Notes under the pieces: generated by a model
What the model saw: the letters and a program-made list of their open reading frames with translations, nothing else
Told to the model about the DNA's origin: nothing
Database searches by the model: none
Program-made: the position numbers and the translations under genes
In this document: piece after piece, positions 16,609-19,844 of the stretch
How the letters are laid out: every line of letters starts with the position of its first letter
How positions within the stretch are numbered: the stretch's first letter is position 1
NCBI GenBank assembly: GCA_011525905.1
Contig: WYBK01000014.1
Location: 1 to 39,485 of the forward strand
Reading direction: 5' to 3'
DNA length: 39,485 nucleotides
From: Acidobacteriota bacterium
Lineage (GTDB): Bacteria; Acidobacteriota; Thermoanaerobaculia; Multivoradales; JAGPDF01

Positions 16609-17551
16609 GACTCTTCAATCCGGGCAGTCCGACGCCGGGCGCCGGTCGCTCGCGCAGCACGTCGCGGCGGAAACGGAAGAGCTCGGCCGGCCGACCGCCG
16701 GTGTGCGGGTTCTTCTCGCCGGTGCGCTCGACCAGCCCGCCCTCCTCGACCAGCCGGCGGAAGTTCTGCTTGTGCAGGCGCACGCCGGCCAGCGCCTCGA
16801 CCAGACGCTGCGCCTGGAGCAGAGTGAAGCTCTCCGGCAGGAGCTCGAAGACCACCGGTCGATAGCGCAGCTTGCCGCGCAGGCGGCCGAGCGCGCTGGC
16901 CAGGATCCGGCGGTGGTCGAGCGCCAGAGGTTGGCCGAGGCCGGCGCGGTCGACGCCGGTCGCGCCGGCGCCGTCGCGCTCCGCCTCGGCCGCCAGCCCC
17001 GACTCGTAGAGCAGCTCGAACCGGTCGAGCACGCGCTCGCCGTCCCACGGGGCGCCGTGCAGCCCGAAGGCGATCTCGGCGCGCTCGCGGCGCCCGGCCC
17101 GCTCCTGCCCGCCGATCGACGCCGCCAGCCAGCGCGTCAGCCCCGGGGCGATCGCGCGGTCGAGCGCGGCCGGCCGCCCCGCGCGCCAGTCCTCCCACGG
17201 GAGCAGGTCGTAGCACGCGACCCAGCGGGCGCCGCCGCCCCGGGCGAGCGGCGCCTCGCGCACCAGCGCGAGGTAGGCGATCGAGACGACGCGCGGCGCG
17301 CCGAAACGCTCGCGCGGATCGCGATTCCGGTTGCCGAAGGTATAGAGCTGCTCGACGTAGCCGAGGTCGAGGCCGCTCTGCTCCTCGACCCAGCGGCGCA
17401 GCGCCAGCTCGAGCGTGCGGTCGCGCTCCGGATCGAGCGGACCGGACGGCAGCGCGAGCCCGCCGTCGCCCTCGACCAGCAGGACGCGCGGTTCCTCGTC
17501 GGTCACGGCGACGATCACGCAATTCAAGCCGATGGCGAGCTCGGTGGTCAT
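16601..17551 (-). CDS. nrtR: NrtR-type transcriptional regulator (Nudix-derived sensor plus winged helix)
   Basis: NrtR proteins repress NAD-synthesis genes and usually sense ADP-ribose or related compounds with a degenerate Nudix domain. Here the Nudix fold spans about 1-150. The Nudix box (about 37-61, [25 protein letters not shown]) has R in place of the first Glu of the REUXEE core, so hydrolysis is probably lost. The C-terminal winged helix (about 215-295) has the typical [41 protein letters not shown] and [21 protein letters not shown]. 316 residues, longer than most NrtRs (about 220-250) because of a Gly/Ala/Asp-rich linker near 170-210. The ATG overlaps the lipB stop as ATGA. Likely targets are the nadABC promoter and perhaps its own operon. 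Confidence 0.88.
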
Positions 17552-18240
17552 GCCGAGCGCGCCTCCGCGCCGAACCCGGCGAGCTCCAGCTCCCGCTCGA
17601 AACGGCGCGCGAAGCGGCGGGCGAAGCGCGCGGCGACGCTTTCGAGCGCTGGCGTCCGGCCGGTCTCGCGCGCGATCGAGGTGGTCTGGATGCCGATCAG
17701 GCCGCAGGGGACGATGCCGGCGAACAGCGCGAGATCGGGGTCGACGTTCAACGCGAAGCCATGCGTCGTGAGCCAGCGCGAGAGGTGGATGCCGATCGCC
17801 GCGATCTTGCGCCCGCCCGTCCAGACGCCGATCCGCTCGCCCTCCCCGACCTCGGCGGTCACGCCCAGCTCGGCGAGCGTCTCGACCAGCAGCTCCGAGA
17901 GGTCGCGCACGTAGCGGCGCAGGTCGCGCCGGTCCGGCGACAGATCGACGACCGGATAGCCGACCAGCTGCCCCGGCCCGTGGTAGGTGACCTGGCCGCC
18001 GCGGTCGGTCTCGTGCACCTCGATGCCTCGGCGCTCGAGCTCGGCGCGCGGCAGCAGGACGTCCGCCGGCGTGGCGTTGCGGCCGAGCGTGTAGACGGGG
18101 TCGTGCTCGAGCAGGAAGAGCCGCTCCGGCCCCGCGCCCCGCCGCAACGCCTCGCGCGCGGCGAGCTGCAGCTCGAGCGCCGGCGCGTAGCCGATCCGCC
18201 CGAGCCAGCTCGCCACCAGCCTGCGCCGCTCCGCCGCCAC
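17548..18240 (-). CDS. lipB: Octanoyl-[ACP]:protein octanoyltransferase LipB
   Basis: Moves octanoyl from ACP to the lipoyl domains of 2-oxoacid dehydrogenases, ahead of LipA. 230 residues. Motifs: LLEHDPVYTLGRNA, the signature RGGQVTYHGPGQLVGYPVV (80-98), catalytic K145 in GGRKIAAIGIH and catalytic C179 in GIVPCGL. The GTG at 18240 is the first in-frame start that keeps the family N-terminus. It has no Shine-Dalgarno but sits six bases after a TAGAAT -10 word, so the message may be leaderless. First gene of the lipB-nrtR-pncB-pncA operon, an unusual pairing of lipoate and NAD salvage genes. Confidence 0.93.
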   Translation of the reverse strand: MAAERRRLVASWLGRIGYAPALELQLAAREALRRGAGPERLFLLEHDPVYTLGRNATPADVLLPRAELERRGIEVHETDRGGQVTYHGPGQLVGYPVVDLSPDRRDLRRYVRDLSELLVETLAELGVTAEVGEGERIGVWTGGRKIAAIGIHLSRWLTTHGFALNVDPDLALFAGIVPCGLIGIQTTSIARETGRTPALESVAARFARRFARRFERELELAGFGAEARSA

Positions 18241-18246
18241 CCGACC

Positions 18247-18252
18247 ATTCTA
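18247..18252 (-). promoter_or_regulatory. Possible -10 element of the lipB operon
   Basis: TAGAAT on the minus strand, six bases upstream of the lipB GTG. No good -35 is seen at the expected distance. If used, transcription would begin at or within a few bases of the start codon. Confidence 0.4.
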
Positions 18253-18550
18253 GCGACCCGCTCCGAACGCCCCGACGAGCCGCACCACGCCTCGACGCCC
18301 CCAGGCGCCGCTTTTCTTTGGCTTCCCGATTCGCTCGCAGCGCCTCCCCGATCCGCAACGTAGCCGCAATCGCCCGGAAAAGCGGCATCTAGGGGGAGCT
18401 CGGTCCGACGCGCGCTCCCTCCCGAGACGCCGCGCCAGCTCGAGGCGGCTCTCCCCGATCGACAGCCATCCCATGCCATCCCCTACCGTCCTCTCGGAGC
18501 CGAGGCGCGATCCGCAGAGCGCCACCGCGCCCGGAGCCAGCACCCCTTAG

Positions 18551-18780
18551 CCGGAGCTTCTCTGGCAACCGAACGGCCTCATCGGGGTCCCGCGCAGCGC
18601 CACGACGCCCGAGGCCTCCTCCCCTCAACCGGAGCTTCTCGGGCGCTCGAACGGCCTCAGCGGCGATTCGCGCAGCGCCACGACGCACGAAGCAGCCACC
18701 TTACAAACGGAGCTCTTCGAGCGCTCGAACGGCCTCGGTGGCGTTTCGCACAGCGCCGAGGCGAGCGCGCCAGGCGGACG
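18551..18780. repeat. Tandem array of 78-bp repeats in the lipB to deoxyhypusine-synthase gap
   Basis: Three head-to-tail units start at 18551, 18629 and 18707, each exactly 78 bp after the last. The shared core is CGGAGCTTCTC, then CGAACGGCCTC, then CGCGCAGCGCC. A decayed fourth unit, recognisable in its right half (CCGCAGAGCGCCACCGCGCCC), precedes them at about 18473-18550. The third unit contains the 14-bp perfect palindrome TTCGAGCGCTCGAA. 78 bp is 26 codons, so one minus-strand frame stays open through two units, but no conserved start or ribosome site goes with it. The rest of the gap (18253-18472) shows only faint similarity to the unit. This array and the promoter after it are all that is seen in 18241-18866. 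Confidence 0.85.
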
Positions 18781-18793
18781 TTGCGATTTCCTT

Positions 18794-18799
18794 TACAAT
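18794..18799 (+). promoter_or_regulatory. Possible -10 element of the deoxyhypusine-synthase-family gene
   Basis: TACAAT (five of six consensus) in a short AT-rich patch directly after the 78-bp repeat array, 67 bp before the ATG. No convincing -35 is visible 17 bp upstream; that position falls at the edge of the last repeat. Confidence 0.4.
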
Positions 18800-18866
18800 G
18801 CTTCCGTCGCGGTCGCGCGGGCCGCGCTTGGGTCACAGATCCCGGAGACCGAGGAGGGAACCCGGA

Positions 18867-19844
18867 ATGCCGGACGGCGCGGTTCGCTCGTTCATCCGCC
18901 ATCACTTCCGCCACTTCAACGCCGCCGCGCTGGTGCGAGCCGCCGAGGACTACGAGAAGCACCTCGAGGCCGGCGGCAAGATGATGGTGACGCTCGCCGG
19001 CGCCATGTCGACCGCCGAGCTCGGGCTGTCGCTCGCCGAGATGATCCGGCGCGACAAGGTCCACATCCTCAGCTGCACCGGGGCGAACCTCGAGGAGGAC
19101 GTCTTCAACCTGGTGGCCCACGACCACTACGTCATGGTGCCCCACTACCGCGACCTGACTCCCGCGCAGGAGCGCGAGCTGCTCGACCGGCATCTCAACC
19201 GCGTGACCGATACCTGCATCCCCGAGGAAGAGGCGATGCGGCGCATCGAGCGTGCCGTCTTCGACGAGTGGCAGGCGGCCGAGGCCAGGGGGGAGCGGCT
19301 CTTTCCCCACGAGTTCCTCTACCGGGTCTTGCTCTCCGGCAAGCTCGACGCGCAGTTCCAGATCGACCCGAAGGACAGCTGGCTGCTGGCGGCGGCCGAG
19401 AAGAACTTGCCGATGGTCGTCCCCGGCTGGGAGGACGCGACGCTCGGCAACATGTACGCCGGCCACGTCATGAAGCACGATCTCGAGAACGTCCACACGG
19501 TGCGCACGGGCATCGAGTACATGACCTTCCTAGCCGACTGGTACCGCCGGGAGAGCGCCGCGAGCTCGATCGGTTTCTTCCAGATCGGCGGCGGCATCGC
19601 CGGCGACTTCCCGATCTGCGTCGTGCCGATGCTCTACCAGGACATGGGCCTGCACGACATCCCGTTCTGGGGCTACTTCTGTCAGATCAGCGACTCGACG
19701 ACCAGCTACGGCTCCTACTCGGGCGCGGTGCCCAACGAGAAGATCACCTGGGGAAAGCTCGACGTGCCGACGCCCAAGCACGTCATCGAGTCCGACGCGA
19801 CGATCGTCGCGCCGTTGATCTTCGCCTGGCTCCTCGGCTGGTAG
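18867..19844 (+). CDS. Deoxyhypusine-synthase-family protein (possible homospermidine-type aminobutyltransferase)
   Basis: NAD-dependent aminobutyl-transfer family. Eukaryotic and archaeal members modify eIF5A/aIF5A from spermidine. Bacteria lack that substrate, and bacterial members are generally proposed to act on small polyamines, for example forming homospermidine. 325 residues from an ATG behind GAGGAGGG; a longer frame from 18738 starts inside the repeat array and was rejected. Motifs: VTLAGAMSTAELG, SCTGANLEED (NAD-binding segment), GGGIAGDFPICVVP, and NEKITWGKLDV, where K297 matches the lysine that carries the aminobutyl imine in deoxyhypusine synthase. No polyamine gene is adjacent. 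Convergent with yceH, with 7 bp between them. Family is certain; substrate is not. Confidence 0.88.
   Translation: MPDGAVRSFIRHHFRHFNAAALVRAAEDYEKHLEAGGKMMVTLAGAMSTAELGLSLAEMIRRDKVHILSCTGANLEEDVFNLVAHDHYVMVPHYRDLTPAQERELLDRHLNRVTDTCIPEEEAMRRIERAVFDEWQAAEARGERLFPHEFLYRVLLSGKLDAQFQIDPKDSWLLAAAEKNLPMVVPGWEDATLGNMYAGHVMKHDLENVHTVRTGIEYMTFLADWYRRESAASSIGFFQIGGGIAGDFPICVVPMLYQDMGLHDIPFWGYFCQISDSTTSYGSYSGAVPNEKITWGKLDVPTPKHVIESDATIVAPLIFAWLLGW

What the first reader, a model, noticed from the sequence alone, without database searches (positions are those of the whole stretch)
18473..18784. Tandem 78-bp repeats in front of the deoxyhypusine-synthase-family gene
Three units at an exact 78-bp period (18551, 18629, 18707) and a decayed unit before them fill an otherwise gene-free 626-bp gap. 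The period is a multiple of three, and one unit carries a 14-bp palindrome (TTCGAGCGCTCGAA). The spacing is too long for CRISPR, and there are no unique spacers. The array ends at the promoter of the next gene, so copy number could affect its expression. It may also be a lineage-specific intergenic repeat family.
Basis: seen in the sequence. Interest (0 to 1): 0.5.

Follow-up and report, generated by a model that had tools for sequence, protein, structure and literature searches.

The report
Intergenic repeat family seeding 78-bp arrays
The three 78-base repeats are one local outgrowth of a short DNA motif scattered between genes throughout this bacterium and its closest relatives, where each species keeps its own version in many copies, as a small self-spreading repeat would.

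Summary
The array is real: period 78, 3.2 copies, 18507-18757. It is not a one-off. The same unit occurs in 16 gene-free gaps of this 3.7-Mb genome (29 units, E<=1.7e-6, none in a gene). Only a ~22-33 bp core is shared with relatives: here CCCCTTAGCYGCCGCTTCTCG, in congeners CCCTTCTATGGAAGCTTTTCG or CCCCTTCWATGGAGCTTCTC, in a sister genus CCCTTTACTGGAAGCTTTTCG. The relatives' versions occur in about 9-60 copies per genome against 0-1 in reversed controls, without enrichment in the rest of the order. Copies are ~95% intergenic. When both strands occur in a gap they point outward (20 of 24 gaps). Copies seed tandem arrays of 76-85 or ~190 bp. In the window a reverse copy (18377-18398) precedes the array, and the block (~540 bp) separates two -10-like boxes that lie 7-14 bp apart in three congeners: a lineage-specific gain. 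Best reading: a REP/REPIN-like non-autonomous repeat of Acidobacteria with BOX-like arm amplification. It fails the REP tests (no tag, no conserved palindrome, no RAYT flanking), and its mobilising enzyme is unknown. A regulator-site reading is less likely because the core consensus changes between close species. Effects on expression are untested.

The parts
18507..18757 (+). tandem array, period 78 bp, 3.2 copies (best-fit units 18512-18589, 18590-18667, 18668-18745)
   Evidence: TRF; the repeat finder; unit identities; model R1 hits 18513-18599, 18600-18677, 18678-18755 at E 3e-13 to 5e-9 (these units were in the training set)
18473..18550 (+). probable decayed first unit
   Evidence: 41-46% identity to the three later units, z 2.5-3.3
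18541..18562 (+). core motif copy CACCCCTTAGCCGGAGCTTCTC
   Evidence: PWM score 29.1
18619..18640 (+). core motif copy CTCCCCTCAACCGGAGCTTCTC
   Evidence: PWM score 24.5
18697..18718 (+). core motif copy, degraded
   Evidence: PWM score 8.9
18377..18398 (-). reverse-strand core copy CTCCCCCTAGATGCCGCTTTTC, the outward partner of the array
   Evidence: PWM score 28.2; model R1 18347-18411 minus, E 0.006
18295..18316 (+). weak core-like match, may be chance
   Evidence: PWM score 9.2
18716..18729 (.). 14-bp palindrome TTCGAGCGCTCGAA, in unit 3 only
18247..18252 (-). ATTCTA (TAGAAT on the minus strand), -10-like box of the lipB-side gene, kept in congeners
   Evidence: promoter role inferred
18794..18799 (+). 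TACAAT, -10-like box of the deoxyhypusine-synthase-family gene, kept in congeners as TAGAAT/TACAAT
   Evidence: promoter role inferred
17548..18240 (-). LplA/B catalytic-domain gene (lipB-like), divergent neighbour (gene caller starts it at 18216)
   Evidence: PF21948 E 2e-47
18867..19844 (+). deoxyhypusine-synthase-family gene
   Evidence: PF01916 E 6e-38

Best explanation
The array is one locus of a short interspersed intergenic repeat family found in one GTDB-defined family of Acidobacteria. The heritable unit is a 22-33 bp core. SHOWN: it occurs in many copies per genome, almost only between genes. It has a different consensus in each species. It often occurs as copies pointing outward from the middle of a gap. 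Its arms are locally amplified into head-to-tail units of 76-85 bp (or ~190 bp). It differs in presence between close species: the window block of ~540 bp is absent at the orthologous site of three congeners. INFERRED: the core spreads as a non-autonomous element copied by an enzyme encoded elsewhere (as REPINs are proposed to be), landing in gaps because insertions in genes are purged. The 78-bp arrays then arise by ordinary tandem duplication of one arm. At the window locus the block pushed apart two divergent -10-like boxes, so the sequences upstream of both now come from the repeat, and unit number could tune expression. That last step is untested.
For: Own genome: model R1 (23 units, sequence only) finds 29 units at E<=1.7e-6 in 16 gaps, 0 of 16 overlapping a called gene; six of the 16 gaps (C88, C47, C353, C283, C8, C218) were not in the training set. 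Core PWM: 43 hits in 20 array gaps against 3 in the reversed control. Relatives: G001 51 hits vs 0 control; G003 61 vs 1 and G002 24 vs 0; sister genus G004 11 vs 1 and G006 9 vs 0; G005 and G007 0 vs 0; the remaining 51 genomes of the order 4 hits vs 6 control. Intergenic: 30 of 31 G001 sites and 32 of 34 G003 sites in fetched stretches; 22 of 24 in a 400-kb G003 sample that is 89% coding. G001 copies are alike over ~33 nt only. Outward polarity in 10 of 12 own gaps with both strands and 10 of 12 congener clusters. Empty site in G001, G002 and G003. In the C88 gap own and G001 carry repeats with unlike units while G002 has none. Exact-pattern scan of one genome per species for 84,980 species: 10 of 19 stretches lie in two Acidobacteria MAGs (7 in BJ1, 3 in CTSoil_010), the other 9 are single matches in 9 other records.
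Against: No mobilising enzyme was found: none of 17 Y1-transposase regions in G000-G003 carries the core. No target-site duplication or exact element boundary could be defined, because the congeners are too diverged. Left and right arms were compared by eye only and do not look matched. Whole-unit homology (76-80 bp) exists only inside the own genome. Several polarity calls rest on weak PWM hits (scores 7.5-10), and four of 24 gaps break the rule (own C120b and C61; G003 C46:65846 and C18:56549). No strain-level length comparison, expression or transposition data.
Confidence: 0.6

Rival explanations
1. The core is the binding site of a DNA-binding protein (global regulator or nucleoid protein), and arrays are multi-site operators or upstream activating sequences.
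For: Short core kept while the surroundings change; almost strictly intergenic; arrays end close to gene starts in several gaps; some G001/G002 variants hold the dyad CTTC-N4-GAAG or CTTCCATGGAAG.
Against: The consensus differs at about half its positions between own and G001 although the DHS proteins of the congeners are 87-90% identical to the own one, which a conserved regulator would hardly allow. The dyad is not kept in the own genome. Polarity is outward even in the convergent gap C339a. Sites differ between congeners. Gap classes of arrays (6 divergent, 5 co-directional, 1 convergent of the 12 resolvable of 16) resemble other long gaps (7, 4, 3 of 14).
Confidence: 0.17
2. True REP/REPIN or TIR repeat mobilised by the RAYT/TIRYT-type Y1 transposases that this genus carries.
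For: Y1_Tnp genes are present (5 in own, 4 each in G001-G003). Acidobacteria are known for TIRYTs (PMC3733652, section 16 read). Inverted doublets and clusters resemble REPINs/BIMEs.
Against: 17 of 17 Y1 regions lack the core within the fetched flank; at least 7 mismatches of 21 in the nearest 400 bp for the 16 of 17 with both flanks held (L205 is truncated). Several of these genes have other inverted repeats, AGGTGCCAGCCG or GGGGACAC blocks. Y1 genes are as common in G005 (8), which has no core.
Confidence: 0.12
3. Outward transcription terminators or Rho-loading insulators; a 78-nt unit is about one Rho footprint (recalled).
For: The outward strand is C-rich over G in 34 of 36 arms, 28 of 36 with the core masked; control gap halves show no such skew (13 of 32 positive).
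Against: No 12-13 nt C periodicity (p 0.65-1.0 for periods 12 to 13.5). The outward strand of the 13 longer arms folds at -0.20 to -0.46 kcal/mol per nt. No intrinsic terminator in the window gap. Part of the skew follows from defining arms by a C-rich core.
Confidence: 0.05
4. One-off tandem duplication, or a coding repeat.
For: Two forward frames are open across the 251-bp array.
Against: Units occur in 15 other gaps; other arrays have periods of 76, 80 and 85 bp, not multiples of three; the gene caller finds no gene in the gap.
Confidence: 0.01

Closest known systems
REPINs / BIMEs (repetitive extragenic palindromes; Bertels and Rainey 2011, PMC3116915, passages read)
   Same: Short conserved core (16-mer there, 22-33 nt here), intergenic, inverted doublets with a variable middle, ordered clusters as tandem repeats.
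   Different: No GTAG/GGAG or CGTC tag seen, no palindrome conserved across species, not found next to Y1 transposases, amplified 76-85 bp arms.
TIR repeats of TIRYT transposases in Acidobacteria (PMC3733652, passages and section 16 read)
   Same: Same phylum, dispersed TIR-like repeats in singles, dimers and groups.
   Different: The TIR motif GGGGWSAS is not in the core; the genus has such TIRs separately and they are another sequence.
Pneumococcal BOX elements (PMC3049150, passages read)
   Same: Composite intergenic element with a variable number of tandem modules; effects on neighbouring genes reported.
   Different: BOX has distinct A and C ends around B modules and a predicted RNA fold; here both ends are the same core in inverse orientation and no fold is conserved.
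MIRU minisatellites of mycobacteria (recalled; search listing only)
   Same: Intergenic tandem units of ~50-100 bp dispersed in the genome.
   Different: Sequence relation not tested; no inverted outward partner known to me.

Membership tests
REP (GTAG/CGTC tagged) | GTAG or CGTC tag beside a 20-40 bp palindrome | tested here: not met
   No tag and no shared palindrome or fold in the alignments; the dyad CTTC..GAAG occurs only in some congener copies
REP/REPIN | Association with a RAYT (Y1 transposase) gene | tested here: not met
   0 of 17 Y1 regions carry the core; flank of L205 truncated
REPIN | Inverted doublets of a conserved core with variable spacer, intergenic | tested here: met
   20 of 24 two-strand gaps show outward doublets; 0 of 16 strong own clusters in genes
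MITE | Terminal inverted repeats with shared interior and target-site duplication | tested here: inconclusive
   Interior not shared; empty site known but no duplication can be read at this divergence
BOX | boxA/boxB/boxC modules | not tested
   The units were not aligned to BOX modules; a general Rfam scan of 18200-18900 gave no match at E<=1
CRISPR | Constant repeat separated by unique spacers | tested here: not met
   Units are similar along their whole length, 59-78% identity, with no constant/variable alternation
RNA element (Rfam) | Match to a curated family or covariation | tested here: not met
   No Rfam match; 3 consensus pairs, none with a change on both sides

The most novel reading that the evidence does not exclude
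A new class of self-propagating bacterial micro-repeat: a ~30-bp core that spreads within genomes of one Acidobacteria family in outward-facing pairs without a Y1 transposase, changes its consensus in every species, and repeatedly nucleates 76-85 bp arrays that re-wire divergent promoters.
Probability: 0.3. Interest if true: 0.7.

Novelty: new variant of a known kind. Interest (0 to 1): 0.5.

Why it matters
Small selfish repeats of bacteria are known mostly from Pseudomonas, enterics, Neisseria and pneumococcus (recalled), and the best studied ones are tied to a known transposase. A family with many copies per genome, a species-specific consensus, outward pairing and no detected transposase would be a second test case for how such sequence populations persist. 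Its insertion between two -10-like boxes gives a natural experiment on how promoters survive being pushed apart. The four paper searches I made listed no description of these repeats; I did not search supplements or other libraries.

Tried and rejected
Full-unit homology in relatives: a DNA search of 58 relatives and the R1 search gave only background-level matches; the link appeared only at core level (onward). RNA structure: none conserved, no Rfam hit. RAYT/TIRYT mobilisation: Y1 genes present but not flanked. Rho/terminator idea: skew present, periodicity absent, strand structured. Divergent-promoter preference: gaps with arrays look like other long gaps. Phage or plasmid origin: no blastn match in either collection at E 1e-5. 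Weak R1 hits inside genes (E 1.5e-4 to 2.9e-3, 9 of 32 clusters at E<=0.01) are treated as noise; two core matches (C195:13916 own, G004:C73) lie in reading frames whose protein looks like HisA (recalled motif, not tested) and are treated as chance. A 167-kb own sample not chosen by hits held no further strong copy, as expected from ~16-20 clusters in 3.7 Mb. A first gene caller was wrong (DHS gene on the wrong strand) and was replaced. Strain-level length variation could not be tested.

Full report
OBSERVATION. The three-unit array is as described. TRF: 18507-18757, period 78, 3.2 copies, 77% matches, score 243. Units at 18551/18629/18707 share 59-78% identity (z 6-10); the 'decayed' unit at 18473 shares 41-46% (z 2.5-3.3). 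The gap lies between a lipoyl-ligase-family gene (minus, PF21948) and a deoxyhypusine-synthase-family gene (plus, PF01916) and contains no called gene.

GENOME-WIDE. A DNA search of the own genome (G000, 3.74 Mb, 353 contigs) returned, besides the locus itself, partial matches up to E 6e-6, several of them in arrays with a similar period. Twenty-three units were aligned (A1) and a sequence-only covariance model R1 was built. It finds 29 units at E<=1.7e-6 in 16 clusters and 55 hits in 32 clusters at E<=0.01. All 16 strong clusters lie wholly outside called genes; 9 of the 32 clusters at the looser cut lie inside genes and are probably noise. Six of the 16 were not in the training set (C88, C47, C353, C283, C8, C218). 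Conserved parts of the unit are a block CGCGCAGCGCC and a core CCCCTTAG-NN-G-NN-GCTTCTCG; over six own arrays the block is on average 92%, the core 76% and the rest 68% identical between units. No fold is conserved and Rfam has no match.

RELATIVES. Whole units are confined to this genome, but the core is not. In G003 a PWM made from 15 cores (12 congener copies, three own) finds 24 sites at score >=14 in a 400-kb sample against 2 in reversed sequence (part of the sample was chosen around known sites); 22 of 24 are intergenic although 89% of the sample is coding. Pattern counts with up to 3 mismatches: G001 51 (control 0) for CCCTTCTATGGAAGCYTTTCG; G003 61 (1) and G002 24 (0) for CCCTTCWATGGAGCTTCTC; sister genus G004 11 (1) and G006 9 (0) for CCCTTTACTGGAAGCTTTTCG, G005 and G007 none, the remaining 51 genomes of the order 4 hits against 6 control hits. 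In G001 the copies agree over about 33 nt only, kTTTTCCCTTCTATGGAAGCTTTTCGTCTTTGTC; 30 of 31 fetched G001 sites and 32 of 34 G003 sites are intergenic.

ARRANGEMENT. In own gaps with cores on both strands the minus copies lie left of the plus copies in 10 of 12; exceptions are C120b (alternating) and C61 (the window: a weak plus hit at 18295 precedes the minus copy). Eight more of the 20 gaps examined show one strand or no hit (threshold 7, 43 hits against 3 in control; several of the counted hits score only 7.5-10). In G001-G003 10 of 12 two-strand clusters show the same order, one is reversed and one alternates; 92 cores are alone and 17 clusters have one strand. Same-strand spacings gather at 75-101 and 185-218 bp. 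Polarity is outward in divergent, co-directional and the one convergent strong gap, so it belongs to the element, not to gene direction. Gap classes are those of other long gaps.

EMPTY SITE. In G001, G002 and G003 the lipB-DHS gap is short. The boxes ATTCTA (TAGAAT, minus) and TAGAAT/TACAAT (plus) are 13, 7 and 14 bp apart; in the window they are at 18247-18252 and 18794-18799, 541 bp apart, with the repeat block between (spacings counted on the printed sequences). A gain in this lineage is the simplest reading. In another gap (C88) the own genome has a minus unit and a weak plus core and G001 has arrays with unlike units but the same outward arrangement (78-bp x 3.8 on the left, 85-bp x 2.5 on the right), while G002 has none there.

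MECHANISM. Many similar copies per genome, a consensus that shifts between species whose DHS proteins are 87-90% identical, intergenic bias and presence/absence between congeners are the marks of a spreading repeat population, as described for REPINs (PMC3116915, passages read). The mover is not the obvious one: Y1 transposases are present, but 0 of 17 regions carry the core, and several have other flanking inverted repeats. The 78-bp arrays are best seen as secondary tandem duplication of one arm, comparable to boxB modules in BOX elements (PMC3049150, passages read). A Rho-loading role was tested: a C-over-G skew exists (28 of 36 arms with the core masked) but no 12-13 nt periodicity, and the strand is structured.

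VERDICT. An ordinary-looking tandem repeat turns out to be one site of a lineage-restricted interspersed repeat family that my four paper searches did not show as described. It works like REPIN/BOX repeats but fails the membership tests of REPs. Effects on lipB or DHS expression are inference only.

Noticed in passing
L206 (G000:C203), L219 (G001:C85), L212, L217, L220 and others: Y1 transposase genes of this genus are flanked by inverted repeats of their own: AGGTGCCAGCCG around ~280-325-aa genes, and GGGGACAC tandem blocks around ~215-235-aa genes; the latter fits the TIRYT motif GGGGWSAS.
   Followed up: partly
L085:1436-1465 (G000:C88:13123-13152): A 30-bp perfect palindrome, GGTGACAGTTACCTCGAGGTAACTGTCACC, lies in the same gap as an array (seen).
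   Followed up: no
L161:515-620 (G003:C1), L378, L379, L381: Directly 3' of several G003 cores the pyrimidine tract is expanded into short microsatellites such as (GCTTTTC)n, starting from the last bases of the core.
   Followed up: no
L102 and L170 (G003:C14 near 70500 and 77600): Core-like copies in inverted orientation sit inside long open frames of two similar stretches, the in-frame case with the lowest E-value (3.3e-5) in a relative.
   Followed up: no
G000 C283:2-124, C337:8062-8111, C353:2895-3174, C47:13182-13320: Several arrays lie at or near contig ends, so the true copy number in the genome is probably higher than counted.
   Followed up: no
L296:2257-2559 (G002:C143): Where own and G001 carry repeats in the C88 gap, G002 has a called small gene of ~100 aa instead.
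   Followed up: no
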